Assembly: GCA_005885515.1 (NCBI GenBank)
Contig: VAWK01000024.1
Span: forward strand, 1 to 64,000
DNA length: 64,000 bases
Source: Actinomycetota bacterium
Lineage (GTDB): Bacteria; Actinomycetota; Thermoleophilia; Solirubrobacterales; Solirubrobacteraceae
Direction of reading: 5' to 3'
A program made the position numbers and the translations under genes. Positions 923 through 39,583 of the stretch are shown piece by piece. How positions within the stretch are numbered: position 1 is the stretch's first letter; each line of letters opens with the position of its first letter. A model generated the notes under the pieces. It saw only the letters and a program-made list of their open reading frames with translations, was not told the DNA's origin and did not search any database.

Positions 923-1021
923 CGGCCTCGTCGCACGCGGATCGCGCGGCCTTGTTGCGGGCGCATGGCGCGGTCCGCGTCGCCGGCACGTGCGCCTCGC
1001 CCGCGGATCGCGCGTCGCGCG

Positions 1022-1603: not shown

Positions 1604-1671
1604 AGGGTCATTCTATGCGCGGGCCAGTCGCTGACCGGTGCTCGCAACACACGGAACGCCGTCTCACGCAG

Positions 1672-1757: not shown

Positions 1758-1800
1758 GGCGACGCACCTGCCGCCGTTCAGGCGAGTTGCGGCTGCTCCT

Positions 1801-3588: not shown

Positions 3589-3690
3589 CGCAATCGCAGG
3601 TTAGGCGCGCGGACGTGCTCGCACGCCGGCGCCGGGGCGGATTTCATCGCCCGTTCATCACCGTCTCGGCGGGCCGCTGTGCCCGGCGAC

Positions 3691-3730
3691 GCGCCGATGG
3701 CCCCGGCGGCGCGCCGATGGGCCCGGCGGC
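3691..3730. repeat. 20-bp tandem duplication upstream of dipZ
   Basis: GCGCCGATGGCCCCGGCGGC at 3691-3710 is repeated with one change at 3711-3730, inside the 160-bp gene-free spacer between dipZ and the small membrane-protein gene. Confidence 0.6.
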
Positions 3731-3748
3731 GCGCGCGCACTCCGATCC

Positions 3749-3898
3749 TCAATGTCGCAGCATCACATACACGACGCACGCCGCCAGCGCGATCTGGCCA
3801 AACGCGAGCGCGGTGCCGAGGTTGGCGGCGCCGAGCGCCCCGGCGAGCGCGCTCGCGAGCGCGAACGCGCCCGCGATCATGAGCAGATCGCGGATCAT
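3749..3898 (-). CDS. Small hydrophobic protein, 49 residues
   Basis: A 49-codon reading frame starting at the ATG MIRDLLMIAG and consisting almost entirely of two hydrophobic stretches joined by a short AANLG turn, ending in VYVMLRH. It lies 31 bp downstream of the meaB stop on the same strand, so it would be the last gene of the ecm-meaB operon. Hydrophobicity and position support a real membrane protein; there is no recognisable family. It is small enough that a chance frame cannot be excluded. Confidence 0.6.
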   Translation of the reverse strand: MIRDLLMIAGAFALASALAGALGAANLGTALAFGQIALAACVVYVMLRH

Positions 3899-3929
3899 GC
3901 GTGCCCGCGCACGCTGCGCGCCAACGGGC

Positions 3930-6973: not shown

Positions 6974-6980
6974 GTGATCA

Positions 6981-7010
6981 ATTGTACGGTCGCGCAGTGC
7001 CCATTATCCT
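6981..7010. promoter_or_regulatory. Interleaved divergent promoters for ecm and clpS
   Basis: Only 44 bp separate the two start codons. Plus strand: TTGTAC (6982-6987), a 17-nt spacer, TATCCT (7005-7010), then GTG 7 nt later. Minus strand: TACAAT (6986-6981), then ATG 7 nt later. The clpS -35 box therefore overlaps the ecm -10 box. Both transcripts would be leaderless. Confidence 0.55.
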
Positions 7011-7017
7011 TGGGCGC

Positions 7018-7305
7018 GTGAGTCAGACGCTCGAGCTACCGCGTGTGGACGGACCCGGCAGCGGGCTCGGTGGAGCGTGGAAGGTGATCGTGCGCAACGA
7101 CGACCACAACACCTTCGAGCACGTCGCGCGCACGCTGGCGCGCGTGATCCCCGGCGTGACCCTGCAGCGCGGCCACGAGATCGCCAACGTCATCCACAAC
7201 GCCGGCCGCGCGCTCGTGTACTGCGGTCAGCACGAGCCGGCCGAGCACTACTGGGAGCAGCTCAAGGGCGCCGGCCTGACGATGGCGCCGCTCGAGAAGG
7301 GCTGA
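7018..7305 (+). CDS. clpS: ClpS, ATP-dependent Clp protease adaptor
   Basis: This adaptor hands N-end-rule substrates to the ClpA/ClpC unfoldase of the Clp protease. The 95-residue protein starts at the GTG at 7018, which lies 7 nt after TATCCT. Typical ClpS features are WKVIVRNDDHNTFEHV (the NDDHNT N-degron pocket) and HEIANVIHNAGRALVYCG. It is the only plus-strand gene between ccr and ecm. Its stop abuts the stop of the convergent 7306 gene. Confidence 0.93.
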   Translation: MSQTLELPRVDGPGSGLGGAWKVIVRNDDHNTFEHVARTLARVIPGVTLQRGHEIANVIHNAGRALVYCGQHEPAEHYWEQLKGAGLTMAPLEKG

Positions 7306-7677
7306 TCAGGCGCTCTCGCCCTCGACCGTGCGCGCGCCGTCGCCCCAGCCGCGGCCGTTGCCGGTCGGCGGCGGCGTCACCACCGCGCCGCCGGCGGTGA
7401 GGTCCCACCAGCCGTAGCTCACGGGCACCTGATACCAGCCCGAGTGACGCACGCGGAAGTCGATCATCTCCGGGCCTTCCCAGTAGCGCTCCCAGCCCAG
7501 GTGCTCGGCAAACGTCGCCAGCTGCTGGAACTTGTAGCGGTCATCGCGTGCGCGATACACCGCGTAGGAGCTGGCCCCGTAGCGCACCGCGGCGGCGGCG
7601 ACGCCGTTCAGCGCGCGCTCGAACGCGTCGGCGCGAAAGCCGGTCGCATACCAGGGGATGATCACGGTGCCGGTCAC
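7306..7677 (-). CDS. Unknown 123-residue protein translationally coupled to ccr
   Basis: A soluble protein of 123 residues that I cannot place in a named family. It has a compact alpha/beta N-terminal part (TGTVIIPWYATGFRAD), an aromatic-rich core (LGWERYWEGPEMIDFRV, SYGWWDL) and a Gly/Pro-rich tail. A small alpha/beta barrel of the antibiotic-biosynthesis-monooxygenase type is possible but not shown. Its GTG start shares one base with the ccr TAG stop (TAGTG), so it should be made together with Ccr. That makes a role in the ethylmalonyl-CoA pathway the simplest hypothesis. Confidence 0.78.
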   Translation of the reverse strand: MTGTVIIPWYATGFRADAFERALNGVAAAAVRYGASSYAVYRARDDRYKFQQLATFAEHLGWERYWEGPEMIDFRVRHSGWYQVPVSYGWWDLTAGGAVVTPPPTGNGRGWGDGARTVEGESA

Positions 7678-8933
7678 TAGGCGCCCACCTCCGCGTGGAT
7701 CGCGCCAGGGCCCTCGGCGGTCTTGCCCTGACCGTCCTGCTCGGCGCCGATCAGGATCGAGATCTTGCCGAGGTGCTTGTTTTCGCGCATCAGCTGGTGA
7801 GCTTCGGCGACGCCGTCGAAGCCCAGTGTGCGCCACAGCACAGGCCGGATCTGCCCGCTCTCGATCAGCTCGTTGGCCTTCGTGCACTCATACGCGTTGG
7901 CGAAGTGCGAGCCGAGGATCTCCTTCTGGCGCATCCACAGGTAGGCGACGTTGAAGTCGAGGTCGATCCCGGTCGTGCCCGCGCAGATGACCACTTTGCC
8001 GAACGTCTTGGCGGTGAACACGGAGGTCGGGAAGGTCGCTTTCCCGACATGCTCGAACACGATGTCGGGTGCGTCGCCGAGGATCTCCTTGACGCGCTTG
8101 GCGAAGGCGAGCGTTACCTTGAAGCGCGCCTTCTCCTCGTCGGGGCTCTCGCCGCCCTTGCGCATCATGCCTGCGAACTCGTTGCGGTCGATGTAGTCGA
8201 CCGCTCCGAGGCGCTTCACCAGCTCGCCCTTCTCCTCGGAGGAGACGACACCCACGCAATGGGCTCCGGAGAGGGCACACAGCTGGGTCGCGAACACGCC
8301 CAGACCGCCGGCGGCGCCCCAGATGAGCACGTTGTGGCCGGCCTGCAGCTTGCAGCGCGTGAGCAGCATGCGGTAGGCGGTGAAGTACACCAGTCCGTAA
8401 GAGGCAGCCTCCTCCCAGGTGAGCGCTGCGGGCTTGGGCAGCAGCTGCTGCGCCTGGACTTTGGTGAACTGCGCGAACGAGCCCCACGTCGTCTCATACC
8501 CCCAGATCTTCTGCGAGGGGGCAGCCAGCGGATCGAGACCGTGCACCTCGGGGTCCTCGTAGGAGGCCTGGTTGCAGTGCACGACGACCTCGTCGCCCGG
8601 CTTCCAGCGGGTGACGCCCGCGCCGACCTTCCACACCACGCCGGAGGCGTCCGAGCCGCCGATGTGGTGCCCGAACTCAGGGTGGTCTCCGTACTTCATG
8701 ACCGACACGGGCTTGCCCAGAGCGGCCCAGACGTTGTTGTAGTTGACGCCGGCGGCCATCACGCGCACGATGACCTCGAACGCGCCGGGCTCGGGGACTT
8801 CGATCTCCTCCACCTGGAACGCGTCCTTGGGCTCGCCGAAGCGCTCCTCGCGGATCACCCACGCGGCCATCGTGGCTGGCAGCTGGCCGGGCTCGGTGCT
8901 GACGTCGGATACTCGCTGCAGGTCAATCGCCAC
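7677..8933 (-). CDS. ccr: Crotonyl-CoA carboxylase/reductase
   Basis: This enzyme reductively carboxylates crotonyl-CoA with NADPH and CO2 to (2S)-ethylmalonyl-CoA, the defining reaction of the ethylmalonyl-CoA pathway. It is 418 residues of the zinc-independent medium-chain dehydrogenase/reductase fold. Visible are the N-terminal catalytic domain (MAAGVNYNNVWAALG, HHIGGSDASGVVW), the nucleotide motif WGAAGGLGVFA, and the C-terminal KTFGKVVICAGTTG and MRQKEILGSHFANAYE typical of Ccr. The GTG at 8933 (VAIDLQRV) is chosen because GAGGAAG lies about 8 nt upstream. TAGGAT (minus strand, 8979-8974) is a plausible -10 giving a ~35-nt leader, unlike the leaderless neighbours. Confidence 0.95.
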   Translation of the reverse strand: MAIDLQRVSDVSTEPGQLPATMAAWVIREERFGEPKDAFQVEEIEVPEPGAFEVIVRVMAAGVNYNNVWAALGKPVSVMKYGDHPEFGHHIGGSDASGVVWKVGAGVTRWKPGDEVVVHCNQASYEDPEVHGLDPLAAPSQKIWGYETTWGSFAQFTKVQAQQLLPKPAALTWEEAASYGLVYFTAYRMLLTRCKLQAGHNVLIWGAAGGLGVFATQLCALSGAHCVGVVSSEEKGELVKRLGAVDYIDRNEFAGMMRKGGESPDEEKARFKVTLAFAKRVKEILGDAPDIVFEHVGKATFPTSVFTAKTFGKVVICAGTTGIDLDFNVAYLWMRQKEILGSHFANAYECTKANELIESGQIRPVLWRTLGFDGVAEAHQLMRENKHLGKISILIGAEQDGQGKTAEGPGAIHAEVGA

Positions 8934-8976
8934 TGGCTCTTCCTCGCGTGTCGGGTACTGGGACGGCCTCGCAATC

Positions 8977-9414
8977 CTACCGGCGGGCCGGCCGCGCGGC
9001 CCCGCGCCGCTCCACCCGCCACACCAGGCGCAGCCCGGACCAGTGCTCATCCAGCGCCGCCACCTTCACGTCGACCAGGCCCAGCGCCAGCGCCAGCTCG
9101 CGGATGTCCTGCTCGCGGATGTCGCTGTCGCGCCCGTCGGCTCGCCGCGGCCACGCGATCCACACGGCGCCGTCGGGAAAGATCCGCTCGGCGAGCGCCG
9201 GGAGGCTCTCGCGCACACCCGCCAGCGCCGCGAAGAAGGCGACGATCGTCGCCGCGCGCGAGGTCTGCCCGGCGTGGCCGCGCTCGCGCGCGATTCTGGC
9301 CTCAGCGGGCGCGCCGGGGATGCTCCAGTCGCGCGGCGCGTCGATCAGCAGCACCTCGTTGCTCGAATCCACGCTGAGCTTGCGCCACAGCGGCCTTGCC
9401 GAGTCGCCGCTCAC
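8977..9414 (-). CDS. DUF3052 family protein
   Basis: A 145-residue protein of the actinobacterial DUF3052 family; its function is unknown. Family features are the N-terminal SGDSARPLWRKLSV, VLLIDAPRDW, AATIVAFFA, the core PDGAVWIAWPRRADG and the C-terminal VDVKVAALDEHWSGLRLV. The GTG at 9414 matches the usual N-terminus, although the GGGAGG before it has almost no spacing. It follows the MFS gene by 25 bp, and its stop overlaps the putative ccr -10 box. Confidence 0.87.
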   Translation of the reverse strand: MSGDSARPLWRKLSVDSSNEVLLIDAPRDWSIPGAPAEARIARERGHAGQTSRAATIVAFFAALAGVRESLPALAERIFPDGAVWIAWPRRADGRDSDIREQDIRELALALGLVDVKVAALDEHWSGLRLVWRVERRGAARPARR

Positions 9415-9439
9415 CTCCCGCTGGATACCAGCTGGCGCC

Positions 9440-11074
9440 TCAGGCGGGAATCGTCTCGGCCGCGGGCGCGCGCGCGGTGGACTCCGCCCCCGTCGCCGGG
9501 CCAGCTTCGGCAGCGGGTTCGGCGGTCGGCGTCGGCTGGAGCGCTGGCACCGGCTGGGACGTGGGCTGCGTCGCCGCTCGCCCAATCAGCGTCCAGGCGA
9601 GCAGCGCACCGAGCAGCGCCAGGGCGCCGATCGCGTACAGACCTTTCGTGAGCGCATACACGTAGGTCTCGTTGAGCGCGCCCTGGACATGAGCCGGGAG
9701 GCGCGTGGTGCTGGCGCCCGAGCCGAGCAAGTCCACCAGCTTTGCGCGGCTTTCCGGGCTGAGGTGTGGCAGCCGCGTGGACAGCTGACTGCGCCCGACG
9801 GTGGCGATGACCGCGCCCAGGGCGGCCACGCCGAAGGTCGAGCCGACCATGCGGGTCATGTTGAGGATCCCGGACGCCACGCCGGCCTTGGTGCGATCCA
9901 CAGCGTTCATCGCGGCGGTGCTCATCGGCGACATCACGAAGCCGATGCCGAGGCCCTGCAAAAGGAAGCTCACGACCAGAAAGCCGTAGCTCGAGTGGGT
10001 GGTGATGCCGGTCATCCAGAACATCGACGCCGACACCGCGATCAGGCCGCCCGTCATCAGCAGCCGCGGGCCGATGCGGTCTGCCAGGCGCCCGGAGATC
10101 GGGCCGGCGAACATCACCACCAGCGTCGTGGGCAGGAAGCGCAGCCCCGTCTGCAGCGGGGAGAAGTGAAGGATGTCCTGCATGTACAGCGCCAGCGAGA
10201 AGAAGGTGGCGAACATCACGAAGGACACGATGAACGCGACGACGTTGGCGCCGAAGTAGGAGCGCGAGCGGAAGAAGCTGAACTGCACCATCGGCGCGCG
10301 CCGGCGCGGCTCGATCACCACGAACGCGGCCAGCGCCAGCAGTGCGATCGCGAACAGCGCGATCACCCTGGTGGAGCCCCAGCCCCACGCGTTGCTCTTC
10401 ACGAGCGCGAGCACGAGCGCCGCAAGCCCGAGCGTGAGGCTTGCGACTCCGGGAATGTCGACCTCCCGGATCGCGGTCTCGTCGCGCGACTCGCGCGTGG
10501 CGAACAGCGTCACCCCGATCGCTGCGATCGCGACGGGGACGTTGAGGATGAAGATCGACTGCCAGCTGACGTCCTCGACGAGCAGGCCGCCCAGGACCGG
10601 CCCGATCGCCAGCGCCATGGCCGACACCCCGGCCCACGTGCCGATCGCACGGCCACGCTCGTGCACGTCGAACGTGTTGGAGATGATCGACAGGGTCGCC
10701 GGCATCATGAAGCCAGACCCGATGCCCTGCACGGCGCGAAACGCGATCAGCCAGGTGTCGCTGCGTGAGAGCGCGATCAGCAGGCTCGAGAGCCCGAACA
10801 CGACCACGCCGAACAGGAACATGCGCCGGCGCCCGAACAGGTCGCCCAGCCGCCCGCCCGTGACCAGCACCACGGCAAAGGTAAGCGTGTACGCGTTGAC
10901 GGTCCACTCGAGCGAGGACGTGCTCGCGTGCAGGCCGCGCTGAATCGACGGCAGCGCCACGTTCACGACCGTGTTGTCGAGCATGATCATGAACAGCGCG
11001 AAGCACATCGCCCCGAGCGTCCACCAGCGGCGGTTCTCCTCGGTCATCTTCAAGGCGCGGACCCTCTCGGCCAT
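9440..11074 (-). CDS. MFS multidrug efflux transporter (DHA2 / EmrB-QacA type)
   Basis: A 544-residue proton-driven exporter with about 14 hydrophobic segments. Motifs: LDNTVVNVALPSIQ at the end of segment 1, RLGDLFGRRRMF (motif A) after segment 2, and GPVLGGLLVEDVSWQSIF (motif C region). A long Pro/Ala/Thr tail (last ~45 residues) is cytoplasmic or disordered. It begins 3 bp after the MarR regulator's stop with GGAGGAG as ribosome site, so regulator and pump form one operon. The substrate cannot be read from sequence. Confidence 0.92.
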   Translation of the reverse strand: MAERVRALKMTEENRRWWTLGAMCFALFMIMLDNTVVNVALPSIQRGLHASTSSLEWTVNAYTLTFAVVLVTGGRLGDLFGRRRMFLFGVVVFGLSSLLIALSRSDTWLIAFRAVQGIGSGFMMPATLSIISNTFDVHERGRAIGTWAGVSAMALAIGPVLGGLLVEDVSWQSIFILNVPVAIAAIGVTLFATRESRDETAIREVDIPGVASLTLGLAALVLALVKSNAWGWGSTRVIALFAIALLALAAFVVIEPRRRAPMVQFSFFRSRSYFGANVVAFIVSFVMFATFFSLALYMQDILHFSPLQTGLRFLPTTLVVMFAGPISGRLADRIGPRLLMTGGLIAVSASMFWMTGITTHSSYGFLVVSFLLQGLGIGFVMSPMSTAAMNAVDRTKAGVASGILNMTRMVGSTFGVAALGAVIATVGRSQLSTRLPHLSPESRAKLVDLLGSGASTTRLPAHVQGALNETYVYALTKGLYAIGALALLGALLAWTLIGRAATQPTSQPVPALQPTPTAEPAAEAGPATGAESTARAPAAETIPA

Positions 11075-11077
11075 GGC

Positions 11078-11608
11078 TCAGCTCCTCCGGGGTCGCGCCG
11101 GCTGCGCCGGTCGCAGCTCGGCGATCTCCGGGCGGTCGTCCAGGATCGCCTCGAGCGCGCACGCCAGCGCCGCCGCCTGCGCATCGCTCAGCGAGTCGAG
11201 AAACTCCTGGATCCCGGCGAGCCGTCCCTCTGCGAGGGAGCTCGTCATCGAGCGTCCGGCCTCCGTGAGGCGCACGCGCTTCATCCTCCGGTCGACCAGA
11301 TCCTCCTGCCGATCGACGAAGCCGCGCTCGTACAGCCCGTCGATCGCGCGGCTCATGGCCGCTAGCGATACGCCCATCGACTCCGCCAGCTCCTTCACAC
11401 AGCGCTGCTCGCTGCTCTCGTCCATCGCGCACAGCGCCTTGATCTGGGTGAAGGATAGGTCGCGCTCGGCGATCGTGTTGAACGTGCGCACGTTGGACTT
11501 GCGCATCAGGTAGCTGGCCAGCGCGAACATGTCGCGGGTCAGTGCATCGCGACCGTCCGTGGCCGAAGCGCCTCGCGCCGGGGAACTGGCTCCGACAATT
11601 GCTTGCAT
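11078..11608 (-). CDS. MarR family transcriptional regulator of the adjacent efflux pump
   Basis: A winged-helix regulator of 176 residues. Residues about 45-150 hold the MarR core: LSFTQIKALCAM, VKELAESMGVSLAAMSRAIDGLYERGFV (helix-turn-helix) and RRMKRVRLTEAGR (wing). I choose the ATG at 11608 because TAAGCT (minus strand, 11621-11616) is 7 nt upstream; a GTG at 11629 is also open but would lie upstream of that box. Inverted repeats around the start suggest autoregulation. Typical members release DNA when bound by phenolic or drug ligands. Confidence 0.87.
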   Translation of the reverse strand: MQAIVGASSPARGASATDGRDALTRDMFALASYLMRKSNVRTFNTIAERDLSFTQIKALCAMDESSEQRCVKELAESMGVSLAAMSRAIDGLYERGFVDRQEDLVDRRMKRVRLTEAGRSMTSSLAEGRLAGIQEFLDSLSDAQAAALACALEAILDDRPEIAELRPAQPARPRRS

Positions 11609-11641
11609 CTGCGCAAGCTTATCTGTCACGCAATCGTTGCG
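11601..11641. promoter_or_regulatory. Two inverted repeats at the marR start: putative operators
   Basis: CGCAA-TCG-TTGCG (11629-11641) is a perfect 5+3+5 palindrome just upstream of the predicted -10. GCTTGC (11601-11606) and GCAAGC (11613-11618) form a second one spanning the -10 to the start codon. Both are placed where a MarR dimer would block transcription. Confidence 0.5.
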
Positions 11642-11707
11642 CGTGTGACGTCCATCACACTCATGGCCCCTCTGCCCAAGCGCAGCGCGTGCGCGTCGGA
11701 GCGTGCT

Positions 11708-11977
11708 CTAGGTCGGGCTACGCATCCTCGTCCAGTATCGGATGAGCCCGATGATCAGGATCACGGCTCCGAGGATGATGAGTGCCCACGCGCCGATGCG
11801 TAGTAGGTCGTAGGCCGTCTGGCTCAGACCAGTATGGACGTTGCTGAAGTCTTCAAGCGGGCAGGCTAAGCCGCCCGTGCGGCATCGACCTTCCAATTCC
11901 GGAGGGTGGCTGTGCGCCTCGATAAACGCCGCGACCCCGGCGATTACTAGGACAGCTCCCCCGAATATCTGCCGCAT
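11708..11977 (-). CDS. Small two-helix membrane protein
   Basis: An 89-residue protein with hydrophobic segments at about residues 5-20 (GGAVLVIAGVAAFIEA) and 60-82 (AWALIILGAVILIIGLI), separated by a ~38-residue exposed loop with two cysteines. The start ATG is 8 nt after TAGCTT (minus strand, 11991-11986). The family is not recognised. Confidence 0.72.
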   Translation of the reverse strand: MRQIFGGAVLVIAGVAAFIEAHSHPPELEGRCRTGGLACPLEDFSNVHTGLSQTAYDLLRIGAWALIILGAVILIIGLIRYWTRMRSPT

Positions 11978-12082
11978 AGCTTGGGAAGCTACTTGAGGCG
12001 CCCCCGCACGGGCGGTCGGCGGCCTGCAAGCCGCCGCGCGACGAGCTCGAGTCGCCCCAGCTCTACGCCTGCGTGCGCCGCG

Positions 12083-12373
12083 TCACGCGGAGACGAAGGC
12101 GTGCGCCGGATAAAGCTCGGGCGGTGCGTCGATCCCGACCTCCTGCAACAGCGGCGCGAGTACCTCGCCGAAGCGGTTGCACGCCTCTTCGGACTCCCAC
12201 ACATCGACAACGCGGAAGCCGCTCGGTCCTTGACCTGCGGCGTGAACAAGCAGGCCCTCGACCGGCCAGTCAGATGGGGATTCCATGCGATCTTTGCCGG
12301 TCATTTTGCGGACGACCTCTGCGTACCGCTGCTGGGTGAGACCGCCTCCCTGAAACACCATTACCACCGCCAT
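12083..12373 (-). CDS. Hypothetical 96-residue protein, ABM-like
   Basis: A small soluble protein with a beta-alpha-beta pattern (AVVMVFQ, TQQRYAEVVRKM, GLLVHAAG, RVVDVWESEEACNRF, LLQEVGI). This resembles the dimeric alpha/beta-barrel (antibiotic biosynthesis monooxygenase-like) fold, but no catalytic assignment is possible. GGAGGGG lies about 8 nt before the ATG. It stands alone between convergent or tandem neighbours. Confidence 0.77.
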   Translation of the reverse strand: MAVVMVFQGGGLTQQRYAEVVRKMTGKDRMESPSDWPVEGLLVHAAGQGPSGFRVVDVWESEEACNRFGEVLAPLLQEVGIDAPPELYPAHAFVSA

Positions 12374-12457
12374 CGCCTGCCCCTCCTCTCATTCGCGAAC
12401 GGGCGCAGCATACAGTCGCTCGGCTCGCGGACACCTTTAGGGCTCGTACCCGAGCTT

Positions 12458-13507
12458 TCAGCGACGCTGCGGCGTGCCGCCGGCGAACGGCAGCTCGCTG
12501 ACCCGGGCCGTTACCCCGTCCTCGCCCACGTCGAGCACGGCCCCGGGCTCGGCCTCGCGGCGCACCAGCGCCAGCGCGATCGGCCCGAGCGCAGGTGACA
12601 GCGCCACGCTGCCCAGCCGGCCCACCGGGCGGCCCGCGAGTTGGAGCTGATCGCCCGTGCACGCCGGGGCTGACAGTCGCAGCCCGCGCAGATGGCGGTT
12701 GGGCTTGCCTTTGTAATGCAGCCGCGCGACTGTCTCCTGGCCGACGTAGCAACCCTTGGTGAAGCTCACCGCGCGCGCGTTCAAGCCGGCCTCCTGCGGG
12801 ATCGTGGTGTCGTCCATGTCGACCCCGTAGCGAGGGCGTCCGCGCTCCACGCGCAGGCATTCAGCTGCCGCCACCGAGACCTCGGTGGCGCCGCGCCCGC
12901 GCAGCGCGGCGTGCAGGCGCTCGGTGTCGGCGGCGTCGCAGATCAGGTCGACCCCGTGCTCGGTGCGCACGGCGAGCGTGTGCACCCCGTCGACCTCGAG
13001 CGAGCCGTTCGCATGCTCGTCACGCGCCAGCTGCGTCGCCCCCGCGAGGCTGGCGGCGCGGGGCCCCAGCAGCGAGATCAGCCCGAGCTCCAGCGTGCGC
13101 TTGTGCAGCTCCACTTGATAGCCCACCTTGAAGCGGCGAATCATGTCGAACAGGGGCTGCAGCGCCACGCGCTCCGTGTCGAGCAGGAGCCCGCCTGGGC
13201 CGCGCGTGGAACTGGCGCCACGTGCGTGGTCGGCGGCGCGCGCGGGATCGGCGCCCACCGCGAGGATGCGCACGTCGCCGAGCATCTTTCCCTTGTGCGT
13301 GAGGAACGCTGCGTAGCGGCCTTCACCGCTCCGCAGATCGGCGAGCTCGTTTGTGACCTGCCCGTTGAGGAACTCGACTGCCCCTGCGCCGCTCAGGACC
13401 AGCTTGCCCCGCTCGGAGCGGTCGAGCGACGCGCAGCCGCGGGTGAGCGCGTGGTGCTCGGACGCGAGCACCGGCGTGGGTACGCCGGCTGTCGTCGCTG
13501 CTGCCAT
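12458..13507 (-). CDS. ygfZ: YgfZ/GcvT-like folate-binding protein
   Basis: A 349-residue relative of the glycine-cleavage T protein that supports iron-sulfur cluster enzymes and tRNA thiomodification in other bacteria. The diagnostic signature is FTKGCYVGQETVAR, with the conserved cysteine of the KGCYxGQE motif, in the C-terminal half. The N-terminal folate-binding region includes LDRSERGKLVLSG, EFLNGQVTNEL and FLTHKGKML. The ATG lies 8 nt after TATGCT (minus strand, 13521-13516), consistent with leaderless translation. It is transcribed divergently from the 13597 gene. Confidence 0.92.
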   Translation of the reverse strand: MAAATTAGVPTPVLASEHHALTRGCASLDRSERGKLVLSGAGAVEFLNGQVTNELADLRSGEGRYAAFLTHKGKMLGDVRILAVGADPARAADHARGASSTRGPGGLLLDTERVALQPLFDMIRRFKVGYQVELHKRTLELGLISLLGPRAASLAGATQLARDEHANGSLEVDGVHTLAVRTEHGVDLICDAADTERLHAALRGRGATEVSVAAAECLRVERGRPRYGVDMDDTTIPQEAGLNARAVSFTKGCYVGQETVARLHYKGKPNRHLRGLRLSAPACTGDQLQLAGRPVGRLGSVALSPALGPIALALVRREAEPGAVLDVGEDGVTARVSELPFAGGTPQRR

Positions 13508-13596
13508 GGCTTTCGAGCATAGCCCCGCGAGAGGAGCGCGACAGGAGCGTGCGTGAGGCGGGCGCGAGGGCCAATCCCGCTAGCCTCTTGCAACCG

Positions 13597-13974
13597 ATGG
13601 ACACCAAGCGCCAAGGCTTGACGGACACGTTCGAGCGCATCGTGGACTCGCTGCCCGACGACTGGACCGACCTGGAGCTCGACCTGCGCATCGCCGATGA
13701 GTCGCGTTACGTCGAAGCGGCGGTCTACATGGTGACGTGCAACGCGCAGCCCTACTCCCACCACGACTGGCACTGGCGCCTGCGCGTGGCGCACCGCTTC
13801 GGCCACGCGGCGTCCGCGCCCACGGTGCATGGAACGCTGCGGCTGCTCGATGAGGCGGGCGTCGAGGGCGAGCTCGCGGTGCGCCAGGTGCGCAGCGGAA
13901 GGGTCGAGGTGAAGCAGATGTGGGGCCGGCCGCAATCCGTGCGCGAGGAGTTCCGGCGTCTGCGGGCGCAGTAG
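13597..13974 (+). CDS. Hypothetical protein, 125 residues
   Basis: Unrecognised. The N-terminus is acidic and helical (LTDTFERIVDSLPDDWTDLE), followed by a region rich in His and Trp (YSHHDWHWRLRVAHRFGH) and a basic C-terminus. The ATG at 13597 is selected because TAGCCT (13581-13586) is 10 nt upstream; an earlier in-frame GTG/ATG would precede that box. It is 3 bp upstream of the receiver-like gene and probably co-transcribed with it. Confidence 0.75.
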   Translation: MDTKRQGLTDTFERIVDSLPDDWTDLELDLRIADESRYVEAAVYMVTCNAQPYSHHDWHWRLRVAHRFGHAASAPTVHGTLRLLDEAGVEGELAVRQVRSGRVEVKQMWGRPQSVREEFRRLRAQ

Positions 13975-13977
13975 CGC

Positions 13978-14352
13978 ATGGCGCGGGTGCTGGCGCTGGT
14001 CGCGGACCTGCTGTTCGGCTCGCGCGTGCAGGGGCAGCTGGGCGCAGCTGGCCACGACGTGGAGCTGATCGGCGACGCAGCCGGCTTGCGGCGGCGGCTC
14101 GCCGACGCGCCTGCGCCGAGAGCGGTGCTCGTCGTCGATCTCACCGATCCGCAGCTGGGAGGCGCGCGGCTGCTGGAAGAGCTCGCCCGAGAAGGGGCGC
14201 TGGCGGGAACCCGCACGCTCGGCTTCTACTCGCACGTGGACGTGCGGGCGCGCAAGCGAGCCGAACGCGCCGGCTTCGATCTACTGGTGCCGCGCTCGCG
14301 CATGGCGCGCGAAGGCGCACAGCTCGTCGCGCGCCTGTCGACGGCGCCGTGA
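13978..14352 (+). CDS. Receiver-like (CheY-fold) single-domain protein
   Basis: A 124-residue protein with the alternating beta/alpha pattern of response-regulator receivers: RVLALVADLLFGSRV, AVLVVDLTD (the Asp in the usual phosphoacceptor strand), TLGFYSHVD, and a C-terminal GFDLLVPRSRM in the beta-5 region. The N-terminal acidic pair and the beta-5 lysine of true receivers are not evident, so it may be a pseudo-receiver. It has no output domain and no kinase nearby. The start ATG is 3 bp after the preceding stop. Confidence 0.72.
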   Translation: MARVLALVADLLFGSRVQGQLGAAGHDVELIGDAAGLRRRLADAPAPRAVLVVDLTDPQLGGARLLEELAREGALAGTRTLGFYSHVDVRARKRAERAGFDLLVPRSRMAREGAQLVARLSTAP

Positions 14353-33269: not shown

Positions 33270-33353
33270 GCGGGCGTGGTGGAATTGGTAGACACGCCGG
33301 CTTTAGGAGCCGGTGGGCGCTAGCCCTTGGAGGTTCGAGTCCTCTCGCCCGCA
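33270..33353 (+). tRNA. tRNA-Leu (anticodon TAG)
   Basis: An 84-nt class II tRNA. The acceptor GCGGGCG pairs with CGCCCGC, the anticodon loop TTTAGGA sits in a CCGGC/GCCGG stem (anticodon TAG), a long variable arm follows, and the T arm contains GGTTCGAGTCC. Discriminator A, no encoded CCA. An integrase gene begins 180 bp downstream, so this tRNA 3' end is the likely integration target. Confidence 0.96.
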
Positions 33354-33360
33354 TCGATAG

Positions 33361-33388
33361 AAAAGGCCCGGTAATCGGGCCTTTTCTT
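33361..33388 (+). terminator. Intrinsic terminator after tRNA-Leu
   Basis: AAAAGGCCCG (33361-33370), the loop GTAAT and CGGGCCTTTT (33376-33385) form a perfect 10-bp stem followed by TCTTA. It begins 8 nt after the tRNA and is nearly symmetric, so it could also act on the opposite strand. Confidence 0.88.
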
Positions 33389-33534
33389 ATTCTCACGGAC
33401 GCCGGCGGATCGGCACTGGCGCGGGTTGGGTAACACAGTTGGGTAACAATCCGCTACGATCGCTGCATGCACAAGAAAGGGCGCCCGCGCGGTCGCAGCC
33501 GCCGGGCGCATGGACATCGCCGATAGGAGCGACG

Positions 33535-34785
33535 ATGCCAAAGCTCAACCTGCCCACCTACTCGCTACAGCTCCGCGCGCAGGGCACGCGGGCCTTCTAC
33601 GAGGTCATGTTTCGCATCGACGGCCGGCAGGTCAAGCGCCGCGTCGGCCCCGCATGGGTCACGCCTGCCGGCAAGCCGCGGCGCGGGCGTCCGCGGGACG
33701 GCTGCCTCGACGTGGCCGGTGCGCACGACCGCGCCCGCGAGATCGTCGCCGAGCACGCCGTCAAGGCGGCCGACCCGCAGGCCGGGCCGACGTTCCGCGA
33801 CGTCGCCGGCGATTACCTGCGGTGGCTCGAGCGGGTCAAGGGTGCCAAGCCCTCGACGCTGGCCGACCACGGCTACGCGCTCGCCGAGGCAAACGCCACC
33901 ACGAACGGACACGTCATGCGCGCGCTCGGCGACCGACGCGCGGCCGAGGTCACGGCGCGCGAGGTCGAGGACCTGCTCGACGCGCTCGCCGGGTCGGGCG
34001 CGTCGGCGCGAACGATCAACAAGCGGCGCGCTCTGCTCGGGGCGGTGTTCACCTACGGCGTCAAGCGCGCCGGCCTGCCTACCAACCCGGTGCGCGCGAC
34101 CGACAAGCGCCGCGAACCGCAGCGAGCGGCGCTCGACACATACAGCGTCGCAGAGGTCGAGCGGCTCGCATCGGCGCTGGCCGAGGGCCGGCACCGCGAC
34201 CGTCCGGCCGCCAGCGAAGCGACCCGGGCCGAGGACGCTCAGGACGCCGAGCTAGTGCGCGTTGCGGCGTACATGGGACTGCGCCAAGGCGAGCTACGGG
34301 CGCTGCGCTGGCGCGACATCGGCGAGGACGTCATCACGGTCTCGCGCGCGCTGTCGGCCGGCGTGGAGTCCGGGACCAAGGGCGGCCGCGTCCGGCACGT
34401 CCCGCTCGTGCCGCAGGCGGCCGAGGCGCTGGAGCGCCTGCGCCGGCGGGCCGACTTCACCGCGCGCGACGAGCTGGTGTTCTGCAACTGGCGCGGACGC
34501 GCGCTTGACCCGAGCGCGCTCGTCGCGAGGTTCAAGCGCGCGCGCGACGCCGCTGGTCTGCGCCCGCTCCGCTTCCACGATCTCAGACACACCTACGGCT
34601 CGCTGCTCGCGGCTGCCGGCCTCCCAGTCACCGAGATACAGGCGGCCATGGGGCATGCGGACCTCCAAACGACAGCGCGCTACCTTCATGCCCGCCAGGC
34701 GAGTGAGCAGGTCGATCGTTTCGCGCGGGCATTCGCTGAGGGCGGCGACTCACGTCCACCACCGCTTCGACGGCCGCCCGGCTGA
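33535..34785 (+). CDS. int: Tyrosine recombinase (phage-type integrase)
   Basis: A site-specific recombinase of 416 residues that would catalyse integration at the adjacent tRNA-Leu. It has an N-terminal arm-binding region, a SAM-like core-binding domain (residues ~95-185) and a catalytic domain with all key residues: Arg in GLRQGELRALRW, Lys in GTKGGRVRHVPL, HDLRHTYGS (HxxR), and GHADLQTTARYLH (His and the nucleophile Tyr). AGGAG lies 7 nt before the ATG. Its last ~53 codons overlap the excisionase-like gene on the opposite strand, and the C-terminal ~20 residues are Arg/Pro-rich. Confidence 0.96.
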   Translation: MPKLNLPTYSLQLRAQGTRAFYEVMFRIDGRQVKRRVGPAWVTPAGKPRRGRPRDGCLDVAGAHDRAREIVAEHAVKAADPQAGPTFRDVAGDYLRWLERVKGAKPSTLADHGYALAEANATTNGHVMRALGDRRAAEVTAREVEDLLDALAGSGASARTINKRRALLGAVFTYGVKRAGLPTNPVRATDKRREPQRAALDTYSVAEVERLASALAEGRHRDRPAASEATRAEDAQDAELVRVAAYMGLRQGELRALRWRDIGEDVITVSRALSAGVESGTKGGRVRHVPLVPQAAEALERLRRRADFTARDELVFCNWRGRALDPSALVARFKRARDAAGLRPLRFHDLRHTYGSLLAAAGLPVTEIQAAMGHADLQTTARYLHARQASEQVDRFARAFAEGGDSRPPPLRRPPG

Positions 34786-34918
34786 AGCGGCGGTGTCGAC
34801 CGATTCGAACGGAGGGCAGCTCGTCGCGGGCGGCGTAGTCGTGCACCGAGCGCACGGGGATCTGCAGATAGTCGGCGACCTCGGCCGCCGTCATCACGTC
34901 GTGCTGTTCCGCACTCAC
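34628..34918 (-). CDS. Excisionase-like small helix-turn-helix protein
   Basis: A 96-residue protein with an N-terminal HTH_17/excisionase-type domain (MTAAEVADYLQIPVRSVHDY, then LPSVRIGRHRRFSRAAVEA). Such proteins bend DNA at attachment sites and steer the integrase towards excision. The GTG at 34918 overlaps the stop of the upstream small ORF (GTGA); ATG at 34894 is an alternative. The C-terminal part lies antisense to the end of int, an unusual layout because xis usually precedes int on the same strand. The last ~40 residues are low-complexity. Confidence 0.72.
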   Translation of the reverse strand: MSAEQHDVMTAAEVADYLQIPVRSVHDYAARDELPSVRIGRHRRFSRAAVEAVVDVSRRPQRMPARNDRPAHSPGGHEGSALSFGGPHAPWPPVSR

Positions 34919-35076
34919 ACCGCGACCTCTGCCTGCTCTGAACCCGGCGCTCCCGTCGTGCCGGCGCCGTCTGTGCGTTCCTTGAGGTCACGAGAGGCCG
35001 GCCGGACCCCAAGCTCGGGATCGTAGAGCTCGGCGTCTCGGCGGTAGTCGGGAAGGGCGGCGGTTCTGATGACCAT
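34915..35076 (-). CDS. Small ORF coupled to the excisionase-like gene
   Basis: 53 codons from ATG 35076 (MVIRTAALPDYRRDAELYD) to a TGA that shares 4 nt with the excisionase GTG. The polar sequence has no recognised family. The GTGA overlap is the main argument that it is translated; the opposite-strand 35069 frame overlaps its 5' end, so only one of the two starts may be used. Confidence 0.42.
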   Translation of the reverse strand: MVIRTAALPDYRRDAELYDPELGVRPASRDLKERTDGAGTTGAPGSEQAEVAV

Positions 35077-35554
35077 CACCCAGAAAGCCGAGCAACGTGC
35101 TCGCTGCGTAAGCCGATTTCCGCCGAAACGCGCGGGCATCGGCGCCATCCGTGCGCTCCTCGAAGCTAACGCGAGCATCATGAGTGAACGCCCTGACCCG
35201 TTCCTAGCACTCGACCGCTATTTCGCCGCGGCCACGATCGCGCACGAGTACCTCGCCGACCTCCACCTCGAGCTCGCCGCGCTTGGGACGGACAGTCCTC
35301 ACACACGGGCGCTGCTCGGTGAGTCAGCCGCCGTCGTCACCGAACGGATGCCGGCGCTAACGCGCGAGCTGCGCCAGCTGGGAGACGAGTGGGAGACACA
35401 GAGCCTGCTCGACCCGCCCCGCGCGAAGCGCACGCTGGAACTTGCCACGATCCGCCTCATCGAAGCCGAGCCCGAGCTATCAGCGCTGCGAGCACGCCAG
35501 GACGAGATCGTCGCGGAGATGCACGGGCTCCTCGAGCGAGCGCGAGGAAGTTAG
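35069..35554 (+). CDS. Hypothetical helical protein
   Basis: Up to 161 residues from ATG 35069; an internal ATG at 35180 (MSERPDPFLALDRYF) gives 124 residues and is more natural, as it avoids overlap with the minus-strand small ORF. The protein is almost entirely alpha-helical and charged (AHEYLADLHLELAALG, RELRQLGDEWETQSLL, ALRARQDEIVAEMHGLLER). No family is recognised. It is cargo or a maintenance gene of the island. Confidence 0.57.
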   Translation: MTITQKAEQRARCVSRFPPKRAGIGAIRALLEANASIMSERPDPFLALDRYFAAATIAHEYLADLHLELAALGTDSPHTRALLGESAAVVTERMPALTRELRQLGDEWETQSLLDPPRAKRTLELATIRLIEAEPELSALRARQDEIVAEMHGLLERARGS

Positions 35555-35557
35555 CGC

Positions 35558-35785
35558 TCAGCGAGTAGCCAGACGATCGGCCGCAGCGTCCTCATAGCGC
35601 GCGGCGAGCGCCAAGCTCGCGTCGCGGACGCCCTTGATGTCGGTCTGCTCCGCATGCATGCGCAGCTCGCGGGCCCGAGCCCGCAGCTGCTCAGGGCTTT
35701 GCGTGGTATCACGCAGCCTGTCCTCCATCGCGGCGAGCAGCCAGCGATCCTCATCGTGCAACGACGGCCAAGGCGAAGTCGACAC
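35558..35785 (-). CDS. Hypothetical small helical protein, 75 residues
   Basis: It starts at GTG 35785 (VSTSPWPSLHDEDRWLL) and is rich in Arg, Ala and Glu with predicted helices (LRARARELRMHAEQTD, LALAARYEDAAADRL). It converges with the previous gene, with 3 bp between stops. Longer in-frame starts reach 35842. No family is recognised. Confidence 0.52.
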   Translation of the reverse strand: MSTSPWPSLHDEDRWLLAAMEDRLRDTTQSPEQLRARARELRMHAEQTDIKGVRDASLALAARYEDAAADRLATR

Positions 35786-36211
35786 ACGGTGAGTGTACCG
35801 GCGCATAGGTCGAACCCTTGCGGGCGAGACGGTGAGGTTCACGGACGCGGGGCTGAAGCATCTCGAGCCGGTGCTTCTCCGATTTGACGCTCAGCGGGAG
35901 CGACGCTCACCTCCACGGAGTGGATCGCCTCAGCGAGCGACCCAACTGCCAGGAAGGGAGCGCCAGCACACGCGCCCCTCGGTGCTGCTGTCACAGTGCC
36001 TCGCTGCACGGCAAGCGTTCGCGCCATCGCCGCCAGCCATCCTCGCTACGTGACGTCCACGTGGACCGTCTTTCACTACCTCCCCGGTTTCCCTGCGCAG
36101 CCACTCGGTCCGCTACCAGCTTCCCAACGGGAACCTGCCCGTCGGCCTGGCCACGGCTAGTGCCTTGCTGTTCCCCCGTCCGTCTGCTTCCTGCTGCCCG
36201 CTCGCTCCCGC
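35786..36211. other. 426-bp stretch without a supported gene
   Basis: Short open frames exist on both strands, but none shows a ribosome site, family motif or consistent composition. The sequence is less GC-biased than the flanking genes and may be decayed DNA. Confidence 0.5.
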
Positions 36212-37564
36212 TCACCACTCTGCATCTGGCCTCGCCATAAACATCTGTGATGTGTTGGTCGAGGAAGGGGGTCCCCGGGTCGAAGCGAAGCAGAGAGGCG
36301 GGGACCCCCTTCCTCGCGCCAGGTGCAGAGCCAAATTCAGGGAGCGAGCGGGCAGCAGGGTCTTCGGATGTGTGGCCGCCTCATGAACGAAGAGCCAGAC
36401 GACCACCCAACCGAAGACCTGCCGCGGGAGGTCCGCCGATCGCACGAGTGTCTTGGGCGCGCTTTCAGCCGGTCGACGCCGTGAGACGAGCGGCTGCCAA
36501 AGCGACGGCAGGTCGTACTCGATGAAGCGTGGCCGACAGACGGCCGGGTGCTCGCGAAGCGCCGGCGGCAGGCTCGGCGTTCGTCTCATCATCCAGTCAC
36601 GGGCGAGGACGCGCTCGCGGCTACAGAACAGCACCCGCTCCCTGGCAGGGGGGTGGGTGCCTTCGCGAGGGGGCAGGTGCTCGCCTGCATACCAGGCGGA
36701 GAAGGTCTCATCCGCCGTCTCGATCAGGCGACGCAGCGGACCCTCGCGTGCCGTCAGGAAGATCACCGCCGGCGCGATGGCGTGCGCGGCGAAGGGGCCC
36801 TGTCGCCAGCCGTCGAGCAGCCAGCGGTCGTAGCGGCGCAGGCGGTCGATCTGCTTGTGGGGGCGTTCGGTGCGGTCGTACTCGATCAGCACCGCGAAGC
36901 GCCCCTGGCCCGATCCTGCGATGAGGGTGGCGTCGGGCTCCAGGTAGCCCGTGCGGCTCCCTGCCGGGTAGAGGCGCGCGTCCGGCGGCAGCTGTGCCGG
37001 CGGCGAGCGCTCGAGCTCGCCGTCCCCGTCGATCTCGATGTGCCCGTTGCGCGGACCTTGCCAGTGAAACGGCATCTGCCCGATGAGTGCCTCCTCGCCA
37101 TCAGCGGCCGCGTCTCGGGCGATGTGAAGCACGATGGATGCGAGCTGAAGGTCGTGTTCGGCGTAGCTGATGCTGGTGAGCGAGGCGCGCGTGTAGCGGT
37201 GCTCGGCCGGAACTATCTCGCGCTCTCTCAGCGCCGACCAACCAAGAGACGTGAGCCGGTAGTTCCACTCGGCGCGCCCGTACGCGTGGGCCGGGCGGAA
37301 GCGGTCGACGTACCCTGTGTCGTGCAGGCGCTTGAGGCGCATCTGCGCCGCGCGCTCGCGGGATGGGCGCCATCCGAGCGCCGCGAGTTGGCTGGTGGAC
37401 AGGTAGTTCGCGCCGTGGAGCAGCGCCATCAGGCGCAGGTCCCGGTGTGTGAGGGCGAGCCGAGGTGGCGGTTGCGGTCGCCGTCCCCATTGGATCGTTG
37501 CGGCGCTCAAGTCCTCGCCCGCGAGGAGCGCCCTGTGCGCGATGCCGAGGCCGATGTTGGTCAT
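36212..37564 (-). CDS. Replication-relaxation family protein
   Basis: About 450 residues starting at MTNIGLGIAHRALLAG. An N-terminal winged-helix region (ALTHRDLRLMALLHGANYLSTS... RAAQMRLKRLHDTGYVDRF) is followed by a nuclease-like core (SYAEHDLQLASIVLH, YLEPDATLIAG, FAVLIEYDRTERPHKQIDRLRRYDRWL). This layout fits the replication-relaxation family found on actinobacterial plasmids and integrative elements. The last ~40 codons cross a 17-bp inverted repeat and look unlike the rest, so the original C-terminus may have been replaced. It is probably a maintenance or transfer gene of the element. Confidence 0.77.
   Translation of the reverse strand: MTNIGLGIAHRALLAGEDLSAATIQWGRRPQPPPRLALTHRDLRLMALLHGANYLSTSQLAALGWRPSRERAAQMRLKRLHDTGYVDRFRPAHAYGRAEWNYRLTSLGWSALREREIVPAEHRYTRASLTSISYAEHDLQLASIVLHIARDAAADGEEALIGQMPFHWQGPRNGHIEIDGDGELERSPPAQLPPDARLYPAGSRTGYLEPDATLIAGSGQGRFAVLIEYDRTERPHKQIDRLRRYDRWLLDGWRQGPFAAHAIAPAVIFLTAREGPLRRLIETADETFSAWYAGEHLPPREGTHPPARERVLFCSRERVLARDWMMRRTPSLPPALREHPAVCRPRFIEYDLPSLWQPLVSRRRPAESAPKTLVRSADLPRQVFGWVVVWLFVHEAATHPKTLLPARSLNLALHLARGRGSPPLCFASTRGPPSSTNTSQMFMARPDAEW
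36261..36315. repeat. Perfect 17-bp inverted repeat with 21-nt loop
   Basis: GAGGAAGGGGGTCCCCG (36261-36277) and its exact complement (36299-36315) could form a very stable hairpin. It overlaps the 3' end of the replication-relaxation-type gene. Possible roles are a bidirectional terminator, a nick or origin site, or the remnant of an insertion. Confidence 0.9.
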
Positions 37565-37926
37565 GGATCCGCTGCCGCCACCCAGCGCCGGTCGGCGAGA
37601 AGGCGGACGCTGTATAAGCCGCGTCCAGCCGCACTCGCGCAAGCGAACTCGCGACCAAGGCCCGCACCCCTTCCTCAGAGCACGGCCCAGACCCGTCGTG
37701 GCGAGACGGAACGCGGCCAGTGACGCGCAACGCTCTCGTAGCCTTCGGCTCCGCTGGGCGTCAAGCTCGGCCTTCGGCCGCGCTGTGCGCGCCGCTGTCG
37801 CAGCGAGCTTGACCCAGCGAAGCCTCCGGCTAAAGGGTCTCTCAGGTCGGCTGCGCCGAGCGCTCGCTCGCGCGAGGCGGATGCCCCACCATGGTCCGGT
37901 CGTCGGCGCCGGAGTACCTTCCCAGC
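37565..37926. other. 362-bp stretch without a supported gene
   Basis: It contains several short near-repeats of GGCCTTCGGC type (about 37740-37800), possibly hairpins. No coding frame with support on either strand. Confidence 0.5.
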
Positions 37927-38256
37927 GTGGGCGTCGAGCACAGCAGCCGCCAGGAGGAAAGCGCCCGACGTCAGAAGGCGAGAGCGCTCATCGCCGACTA
38001 TCACGAGCAGCAGCTACTCGCGCTGCTCGAGCACGTTCGCGACGGGTTCACACGACTTGACCGAGGCGAGATCGACGCGTTCGAGCTCGACGACCTGATC
38101 CACCGTTACAAGCGCTCCGCACGCGAGCTCTGGAAGTTCTGCGGCCAGACCGGCAGCGACTGGGAGCGCGCCGCACGCACGCTCGAGTGGCTACGCGAGG
38201 AGGGCGACGAGCCCGATTGGTGGCAAGCCGGCGAGCCGCGCCGCCGACGATCGTAG
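37927..38256 (+). CDS. Hypothetical protein, ~109 residues
   Basis: The start is taken at GTG 37927 (VGVEHSSRQEESARR); an ATG at 37891 is possible. The helical core LIADYHEQQLLALLEHVRDG, DAFELDDLIHRYKRSARELW and KFCGQTGSDWERAARTLEWL is followed by a basic C-terminus. It is a conserved-looking acidic/basic helical protein with no family that I recognise, at the right end of the compact integrase module. Confidence 0.6.
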   Translation: MGVEHSSRQEESARRQKARALIADYHEQQLLALLEHVRDGFTRLDRGEIDAFELDDLIHRYKRSARELWKFCGQTGSDWERAARTLEWLREEGDEPDWWQAGEPRRRRS

Positions 38257-38420
38257 TGATCCCCTGCCCGCTCACCGCCCCTTTTTTGCGGGAGCGGCAG
38301 GTCCATGCCGCGTGTTTCTGATCCCACCGGAACAAGAGCGAGGGGGCGGGCGACGCGCTCGCAATCGGGGACGAAGCAGTAGCCAGCGGCGTGCCGCCGG
38401 GCGCTGCTGCTGGTCGTCCG

Positions 38421-39583
38421 AAGATGGCATGAACAGGGCCTCCCTCGGCTCAGCGCGAGACACTCGCGCGAAATGGCAACTGCCGGAACTCGAAGGAGGC
38501 CCCGAGATGACGATCGTAGCTGGCTTTGACGTGCACCGCAGGCAGATCACATTCGACGCTTTGGACACCGACACGGGCGAGCTCATGCGCGGGCGGATCG
38601 ACGCGACGCCCAGCGCGGTGGAGCGCTGGGCCGCACGCTTCGAGGATCGCGAGGTGCAGGTCGCGCTCGAGGCGTGCACGGGCTGGTTGTTCGTCTCCCG
38701 GGCGCTTGAGCGCGCCGGTGCAGTCCCCCATCTCGCGGAGCCGGTCGAGACGCACGCGCTGCGCGGGCGCAAGCGGCGCGCGAAGACCGATCGCGAGGAC
38801 GCGCGCTGGCTGCGCACGCTGCTTGCCGAGAAACGGCTGCCGGAATCCTGGATCCCGCCGGAACACGTCCGCGAGTGGCGCTCGCGGGCGCGGCTGCGCA
38901 AGACGCTGATCGACGAGCGCACGCAGTGGCTGGCGCGCATCCAGGCGACGCTGTTTCACCACGGCGTCGCCGGCGCGCCCGCCGAGCTGCGCAGCGGTCC
39001 CGGACGCGAATTCCTCGAGGAGCTGGAGCTGCCCGCCGACGCGCGCGAGCGGATCGCGATCGCGTTGGCGATGATCGACTCACTCGAGGGCCAGTTGCGC
39101 CCGCTGGAGGCGGAGCTGCGCAAGCTGGCGCGCCGGCAGACCGGCTGCCGTGCGCTGATGGCGCAGTTCGGCATGGGCGAGCTGACCTCGCTGATGACGC
39201 TCACAGAGCTGGGCGACGTTCAGCGCCTCTCGGCGTCGCGCAAGGCGGTGCGGATGGCCGGGATCGACATCGGCGTGCATCGCTCCGATCGGCGCTCACG
39301 TGTGGGCAAGCTGAACCGCCAGGGCTCGCCGCATCTGCGCTGGGCGCTCTACGAGGCCGCCCTGTCGGCGACTCGCCCGAGGAGTCCCGACCATGAGGAC
39401 TACCTCGCACTGAAGGCGCGCGGACTCTCGCACACGCGCGCGTCGCTGACGATCGCGCGCAAGCTCGCGCGACGCTCCTTCCACATCCTGCGCGAGCTCG
39501 GCCCCGCCGCGCTCGAGCCGATCACGACCACCTGAGCGCAATCCGCTCCACCGCTCCGCCACGCCCACAACTCCAAGATGGCA
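38421..39583. mobile_element. IS110 family insertion sequence (ends approximate)
   Basis: Encloses the IS110 transposase gene. Members lack classical terminal inverted repeats. A 9-bp direct repeat AAGATGGCA occurs at 38421-38429 and 39575-39583, which may mark the ends; this is weak evidence. Confidence 0.4.
38507..39535 (+). CDS. IS110 family transposase (DEDD type)
   Basis: A transposase of 342 residues. The N-terminal RuvC-like DEDD domain begins TIVAGFDVHRRQITFDALD and includes VALEACTGWLF and RRAKTDREDARWL. The C-terminal Transposase_20 domain has LMAQFGMGELTSLMTL, VRMAGIDIGVHRSD and RQGSPHLRWALYEAA with its serine. AAGGAGG is about 7 nt before the ATG. It appears full length. Confidence 0.96.
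   Translation: MTIVAGFDVHRRQITFDALDTDTGELMRGRIDATPSAVERWAARFEDREVQVALEACTGWLFVSRALERAGAVPHLAEPVETHALRGRKRRAKTDREDARWLRTLLAEKRLPESWIPPEHVREWRSRARLRKTLIDERTQWLARIQATLFHHGVAGAPAELRSGPGREFLEELELPADARERIAIALAMIDSLEGQLRPLEAELRKLARRQTGCRALMAQFGMGELTSLMTLTELGDVQRLSASRKAVRMAGIDIGVHRSDRRSRVGKLNRQGSPHLRWALYEAALSATRPRSPDHEDYLALKARGLSHTRASLTIARKLARRSFHILRELGPAALEPITTT

What the first reader, a model, noticed from the sequence alone, without database searches (positions are those of the whole stretch)
33535..38256. Compact integrative module with antisense excisionase over the integrase 3' end
Directly after tRNA-Leu and its terminator lie int (+), an excisionase-like gene (-) overlapping the last ~158 bp of int, a coupled 53-codon ORF, two helical unknowns, a replication-relaxation-type gene and another unknown. 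Convergent overlapping int/xis is unlike the usual xis-int order and could make the two mRNAs antagonistic. This ~4.9-kb unit is the best candidate here for an undescribed small integrative element.
Basis: partly seen in the sequence, partly recalled or inferred. Interest (0 to 1): 0.65.

Follow-up and report, generated by a model that had tools for sequence, protein, structure and literature searches.

The report
Mobilizable element with hairpin transfer origin
The stretch beside a tRNA-Leu gene is a piece of DNA that can probably be passed between bacteria: it carries an integrase, an excision factor, a relaxase-type nicking enzyme and an elaborate folded DNA site that is the likely starting point of transfer, and the same folded site turns up in about 20 related elements and even in two records from another phylum.

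Summary
The 'replication-relaxation' gene (36212-37564, -) is a MOBC relaxase: PF13814, with a modelled winged helix plus PD-(D/E)XK nuclease. Its 3' end runs into a 171-nt nested-hairpin site (36190-36360) that I read as the origin of transfer (oriT). A covariance model finds this site in 16 of 399 class genomes (one order) and in two Bacillota MAG contigs. Between genera the stems are rewritten with pairing kept: 96% of cells paired, 45 of 64 pairs changed on both sides, against 44-49% paired for slid controls. Direct repeats flank it on the relaxase side. The order coupling protein, MOBC, site, leading-region genes holds in a finished Thermoleophilia contig and a Bacillota contig; the documented MOBC plasmid pAM373 has the same layout with a giant hairpin. 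So this is an integrative and mobilizable element (IME). Tail-to-tail int/xis recurs in six loci, but the 158-bp overlap does not. The tRNA-Leu site is proven in a congener (attL/attR, ~21 kb element); attR was not found in this contig, so the right end and size are unknown. No function has been shown experimentally.

The parts
33270..33353 (+). tRNA-Leu (TAG), integration target; its 3' half plus terminator is the attL region (33299-33378 is what G244 duplicates at its attR)
   Evidence: ARAGORN; G244 attR copy
33428..33447 (+). candidate arm-type integrase sites: direct repeat GGGTAACnnnnnnGGGTAAC
   Evidence: only such pair in the window (0.08 expected at up to 2 mismatches); same kind of pair beside G244 attL and attR; binding inferred
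33535..34785 (+). tyrosine integrase (int)
   Evidence: Pfam PF00589 E 2.9e-29, phrog_1 E 1.8e-63; homologs at the same tRNA in G315 and G244
34628..34918 (-). excisionase-like HTH_17 protein (xis), tail to tail with int
   Evidence: PF12728 E 2.3e-12, phrog_66 E 1e-8; side-by-side tail-to-tail order in six loci
35069..35554 (+). 161-aa protein of unknown function (the start may be internal)
   Evidence: 70% aa identity in G315
35558..35842 (-). 94-aa protein of unknown function, first gene on the leading side of the candidate oriT
   Evidence: 80% aa identity in G315 with third-position bias
36130..36189 (+). pyrimidine-rich tract on the leading side of the candidate oriT
   Evidence: 0.65 here, mean 0.70 over 22 sites, 13 of 22 at 0.70 or more
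36190..36360 (+). candidate oriT core: outer stem, second stem, small hairpin and invariant central hairpin (36259-36316)
36361..36420 (+). flanking hairpin and degenerate 12-bp direct repeats on the relaxase side (candidate relaxase bind site)
   Evidence: here 15/26 with P=0.16 on its own; clear in seven homologous sites with period 14 (P=0.005)
36212..37564 (-). MOBC-family relaxase (annotated replication-relaxation, PF13814); its C-terminal ~65 codons run through the candidate oriT
   Evidence: domain models and fold searches; conserved P-D...E-x-D...K motif

Best explanation
The locus is the integrase end of an integrative and mobilizable element (IME) sitting in the 3' end of tRNA-Leu(TAG). 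Int and its convergent xis move the element in and out of the tRNA. The MOBC relaxase binds direct repeats through its N-terminal winged helix and nicks the neighbouring nested-hairpin site (oriT) with its PD-(D/E)XK domain. A single strand then leaves, leading side first, through the type IV secretion system of a co-resident conjugative element. Shown here: gene identities, conserved order, the structure and covariation of the site, its position between relaxase and leading genes, and the attachment site in a congener. Inferred: that the site is nicked, that the repeats are the relaxase bind site, that this copy still moves, and which element helps it.
For: (1) Relaxase: PF13814, the Pfam domain listed for MobC relaxases in PMC5357655. 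The model has a MarR-like winged helix (Z about 9-10), and the nuclease domain searched alone is matched mostly by PD-(D/E)XK enzymes such as BstEII, the BspD6I nickase, SgrAI and FokI (top Z 7.6). TraX of pAD1 has this make-up (PMC12857230). (2) Site: 96.3% of cells paired, 45 of 64 pairs with changes on both sides, slid controls 44-49%; most outer stems share only short stretches between genera. (3) Position: MOBC on the repeat side transcribed toward the site in 8 of 9 elements (the window copy overlaps it); leading genes always on the other side transcribed away (window geometry). A finished contig (G258) and a Bacillota contig (L208) both read T4CP-MOBC-site-ParB. (4) Period-14 direct repeats beside the site in seven elements; TraX binds five direct repeats 70-120 bp from nic. 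(5) pAM373, typed MOBC, has T4CP-MOBC-giant hairpin-anti-CRISPR/SSB genes. (6) Relaxase-less islands carry the site between proven att repeats (G228, G305), as expected of IMEs that share the oriT of a helper (PMC6414798).
Against: No nicking, transfer or excision has been shown. No attR was found in this contig, so the copy may be decayed. The direct repeats are weak in this copy (P=0.16). Several MOBC relatives (G226, G198, G224, G151) lack the modelled site. In one element (G244 C10) MOBC lies on the other side of the site. The nuclease-domain Z-scores are middling (best 7.6). The CM alignment A5 was fitted to the structure being counted. pAM373 has a second, slightly more stable window between MOBC and T4CP.
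Confidence: 0.78

Rival explanations
1. [quoted passage not shown] It could also be both.
For: In G244 C1, C5 and C7, G288 C114, G246 and G258 it lies upstream of DUF3072-(X)-ParB-ArdC genes transcribed away from it. Frpo promoters are folded ssDNA in leading regions (PMC11541004).
Against: No sigma-70-like promoter lies in 34500-36600; the invariant hairpin is G+C rich. Several copies sit in elements where no leading operon was found (G228, G111, G087a, G087b). The flanking direct repeats fit a relaxase bind site better.
Confidence: 0.12
2. It is a structured RNA or transcript-level element (attenuator, small RNA) downstream of the relaxase gene.
For: Strong covariation; SGI1 needs a small RNA encoded beside its oriT (PMC9299015).
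Against: No Rfam family hit there; no terminator-like site. The site stays with elements that have no relaxase gene, and in G244 C10 it lies upstream of the relaxase instead.
Confidence: 0.06
3. It is a mobile repeat (MITE or REP type) that jumped into integrative elements.
For: Several copies in G244; palindromic.
Against: Outer stems are rewritten rather than copied between genera. Orientation toward MOBC and leading genes is fixed with one exception. Conserved flanks lie on both sides. No other copy in the window's own genome.
Confidence: 0.03
4. One reading: a small int/xis module whose overlapping convergent mRNAs antagonise each other.
For: The 158-nt overlap is real and is 152 nt in G315.
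Against: The overlap is 59 nt in G111, 0 in G244 and a 5-nt gap in G228, and no extra constraint is seen in the overlap.
Confidence: 0.05

Closest known systems
oriT and MOBC relaxase of enterococcal plasmids pAM373 and pAD1 (TraX)
   Same: MOBC relaxase next to the T4CP gene; a large nested hairpin between the relaxase side and leading genes in pAM373; TraX has a winged helix, a PD-(D/E)XK-type site and binds direct repeats (PMC12857230)
   Different: Different primary sequence; chromosomal element at a tRNA with its own int/xis; the G+C-rich hairpin family GGTCGAGGAAGGGGG is not seen in pAM373
IMEs with MobC relaxase in streptococci (PMC5357655)
   Same: Integrase plus PF13814 relaxase in an integrated element
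   Different: The two reported streptococcal IMEs also encode their own VirD4 coupling protein (PMC5704250); none seen in this window. Different phylum; no related oriT described there
MGI/SGI-type islands carrying an oriT but no canonical relaxase
   Same: Relaxase-less islands here (G228, G305) carry the same candidate oriT as relaxase-bearing elements
   Different: Thermoleophilia hosts; the presumed helper is a MOBC ICE (G258-like), inferred
Frpo/ssi single-stranded promoters of leading regions (PMC11541004)
   Same: Folded DNA upstream of leading-region genes in several copies
   Different: No promoter hexamers; also present in elements where no leading operon was found

Membership tests
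MOBC relaxase (PF13814) | Replic_Relax domain above the curated cut-off | tested here: met
   60.0 bits against a cut-off of 25.3
MOBC relaxase (PF13814) | PD-(D/E)XK-type nuclease domain | tested here: met
   Most top structural matches of the domain alone are PD-(D/E)XK nucleases, best Z 7.6; conserved P-D...E-x-D...K. Middling scores, many concordant rows
MOBC relaxase (PF13814) | N-terminal winged helix as in TraX | tested here: met
   Residues 36-123 match MarR-like winged helices, Z about 9-10
MOBC relaxase (PF13814) | Site-specific nicking of its oriT | not testable with these tools
   Needs biochemistry
Integrative and mobilizable element (IME) | Encodes integrase (and excisionase) | tested here: met
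Integrative and mobilizable element (IME) | Own relaxase and/or oriT but no T4SS genes | tested here: inconclusive
   Relaxase and candidate oriT present; no T4SS gene seen among the ORFs near the relaxase, but the right end is not located
Integrative and mobilizable element (IME) | Flanked by attL/attR | tested here: inconclusive
   attL at tRNA-Leu; attR not found in the contig; attL and attR both present in congener G244
oriT of a MOBC element | Conserved cis site next to the relaxase, between it and the leading region | tested here: met
   exception G244 C10
oriT of a MOBC element | Direct repeats as relaxase bind site | tested here: inconclusive
   Clear in seven homologous sites, weak in this copy; binding not testable
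oriT of a MOBC element | Mapped nic site and transfer function | not testable with these tools
   Needs experiment
Frpo/ssi ssDNA promoter | -35 and -10 elements formed in the folded strand | tested here: not met
   Simple sigma-70 scan of 34500-36600 found none; other sigma factors not tested

The most novel reading that the evidence does not exclude
A previously undescribed oriT family defined by a folded single strand rather than by sequence: an invariant hairpin (GGTCGAGGAAGGGGG...CCCCCTTCCTCG) held inside outer stems that are rewritten freely but always pair, shared by MOBC elements of Thermoleophilia and Bacillota and used as a common transfer tag by relaxase-less defence and cargo islands.
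Probability: 0.45. Interest if true: 0.75.

Novelty: new variant of a known kind. Interest (0 to 1): 0.6.

Why it matters
In the library searched I found no paper describing conjugative or mobilizable elements of Thermoleophilia. If the site is an oriT, its covariance model is a working detector for mobile islands in this group, including ones with no relaxase gene, and gives a clean case for asking whether a MOBC enzyme, for which no covalent DNA intermediate has been seen (PMC12857230), recognises folded single-stranded DNA.

Tried and rejected
Looked for attR by exact and approximate repeats in the window and the rest of C70: none. Considered the hairpin as terminator or promoter: consensus scans empty. 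Rfam: only the tRNA. Viral contigs: one pattern hit with poor model support, 18.8 bits, E 0.065, phage-like contig, set aside. The MOBC protein has no match in the plasmid collection at 1e-5. MOBC relatives G226, G198, G224 and G151 lack the modelled site, and G214 could not be judged well (contig end). G288 C83 (VirB4/T4CP/MOBC) ends before any such site, so it was not used as evidence for adjacency. Blocks at 35895-36003 and 37757-37859, also conserved in G244 C10, were noted but not explained. CloDF13 nic-site similarity was considered from memory but could not be checked in the library and is not used.

Full report
Observation. Gene order int(+), xis(-), 161-aa(+), 94-aa(-) beside tRNA-Leu(TAG) is shared with congener G315 (int 87%, xis 82% aa), and int/xis at the same tRNA with G244 (int 80%). 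In G244 a copy of the tRNA 3' half plus terminator lies ~21 kb downstream, followed by a chromosomal acyl-CoA-synthetase-like gene, so that element has attL and attR. Paired GGGTAAC repeats, likely integrase arm sites, lie at attL here and at both ends in G244. In many other congeners the DNA downstream of this tRNA is different.

Int and xis. In six of the fetched integrase loci (window, G315, G244, G228, G111, G081) xis lies side by side with int, tail to tail; in other loci it lies farther off or was not found. The overlap length varies from 158 nt to a 5-nt gap. The long overlap here and in G315 is a tail extension of xis; nothing indicates selection for the overlap itself.

Relaxase. The gene called replication-relaxation belongs to PF13814, which PMC5357655 lists as the MobC relaxase superfamily. 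An AlphaFold model from 14 homologs (pLDDT 76.5) has a MarR-like winged helix at residues 36-123. The nuclease part modelled alone (pLDDT 84.5) is matched mostly by PD-(D/E)XK enzymes, best Z 7.6. A P-D...E-x-D...K motif is conserved across 14 homologs. In L199, L016, L017 and L019 a coupling-protein-like sequence precedes it, and in G288 VirB4, SLT and TrwB-like genes do.

The folded site. Nested perfect inverted repeats occur at 36190-36360. A covariance model (R1, then R2) found it in 12 of 146 family genomes and 16 of 399 class genomes, all in one order. The exact central hairpin was found at 18 loci in the 84,980-species collection, mostly Solirubrobacteraceae, Conexibacter and Paraconexibacter records, with two Bacillota MAG contigs. 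R2 scores those two at 82.7 and 62.2 bits. Pair counts on A5: 96.3% paired, 45 of 64 pairs changed on both sides, slid controls 44-49%; the alignment was fitted to the structure, but independent folds of 15 sites give z from -6.9 to -18.3.

Neighbourhood. Seen in the site's own orientation, MOBC lies on the 3' (direct-repeat) side transcribed toward it in eight of nine elements that have it, the window included, where the gene's tail overlaps the site; G244 C10 is the exception. DUF3072, X, ParB and ArdC lie on the 5' side transcribed away. Zero-distance MOBC hits in G244 C5, G244 C7 and G288 C114 are only the translated hairpin itself. Direct repeats of period 14 (seven sites) or about 12 (genus g1, weaker) flank the 3' side, and a pyrimidine-rich tract the 5' side. 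Islands with att repeats but no detected MOBC also hold the site: G228 at tRNA-Gly (48-bp repeat, 10.5 kb), G305 at tRNA-Arg (44-bp repeat) and G178 at tmRNA (33-bp repeat).

Comparison. In pAM373 (typed MOBC by MOB-suite, gene annotated replication-relaxation) the order is coupling protein, relaxase, large nested hairpin around 12167-12510, then an AcrIIA9-type anti-CRISPR, PcfJ and SSB genes; that hairpin is the second most stable of 366 windows of the plasmid. The published bind site of the related TraX is a set of five direct repeats 70-120 bp from nic (PMC12857230). This is the basis for calling the site an oriT; nicking and transfer are inference.

Verdict. An IME of a known kind with an apparently undescribed, structure-defined oriT family. 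The element's right end and whether this copy is active remain open.

Noticed in passing
window 38312-39535: IS110-family transposase just right of the module (PF01548, PF02371). IS110-like genes also lie near the site in the Sulfobacillus contig (L196 1349-2602) and, judged by sequence only, in L168 (6986-8119); probably coincidence.
   Followed up: no
window 35895-36003 and 37757-37859: Two further blocks conserved with G244 C10 (84% and 88% nt identity); the second contains an inverted repeat. Unexplained.
   Followed up: partly
L127 (G305:C31) 3995-8647: Small island between 44-bp tRNA-Arg repeats with a SIR2-domain gene, an HTH gene, a PIN-like gene and the folded site but no detected relaxase.
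   Followed up: partly
L060 (G244:C5) 817-14147: Element with integrase, ArdC, ParB, DUF3072, the folded site and a TIR-domain gene.
   Followed up: no
L059 (G244:C1) 5369-8889: An M78-peptidase gene and an 888-aa HD-domain gene between the folded site and MOBC; possible cargo or defence pair.
   Followed up: no
L109 505-610: The G315 copy of the folded site lacks exactly the central hairpin; decay, deletion or assembly loss at a palindrome.
   Followed up: no
L208 (G439:C256): Bacillota (Thermaerobacter) MAG contig with T4CP, MOBC, the folded site and ParB homologs in the order of the Thermoleophilia ICE (ParA-like ORF by eye); misbinning cannot be excluded.
   Followed up: partly
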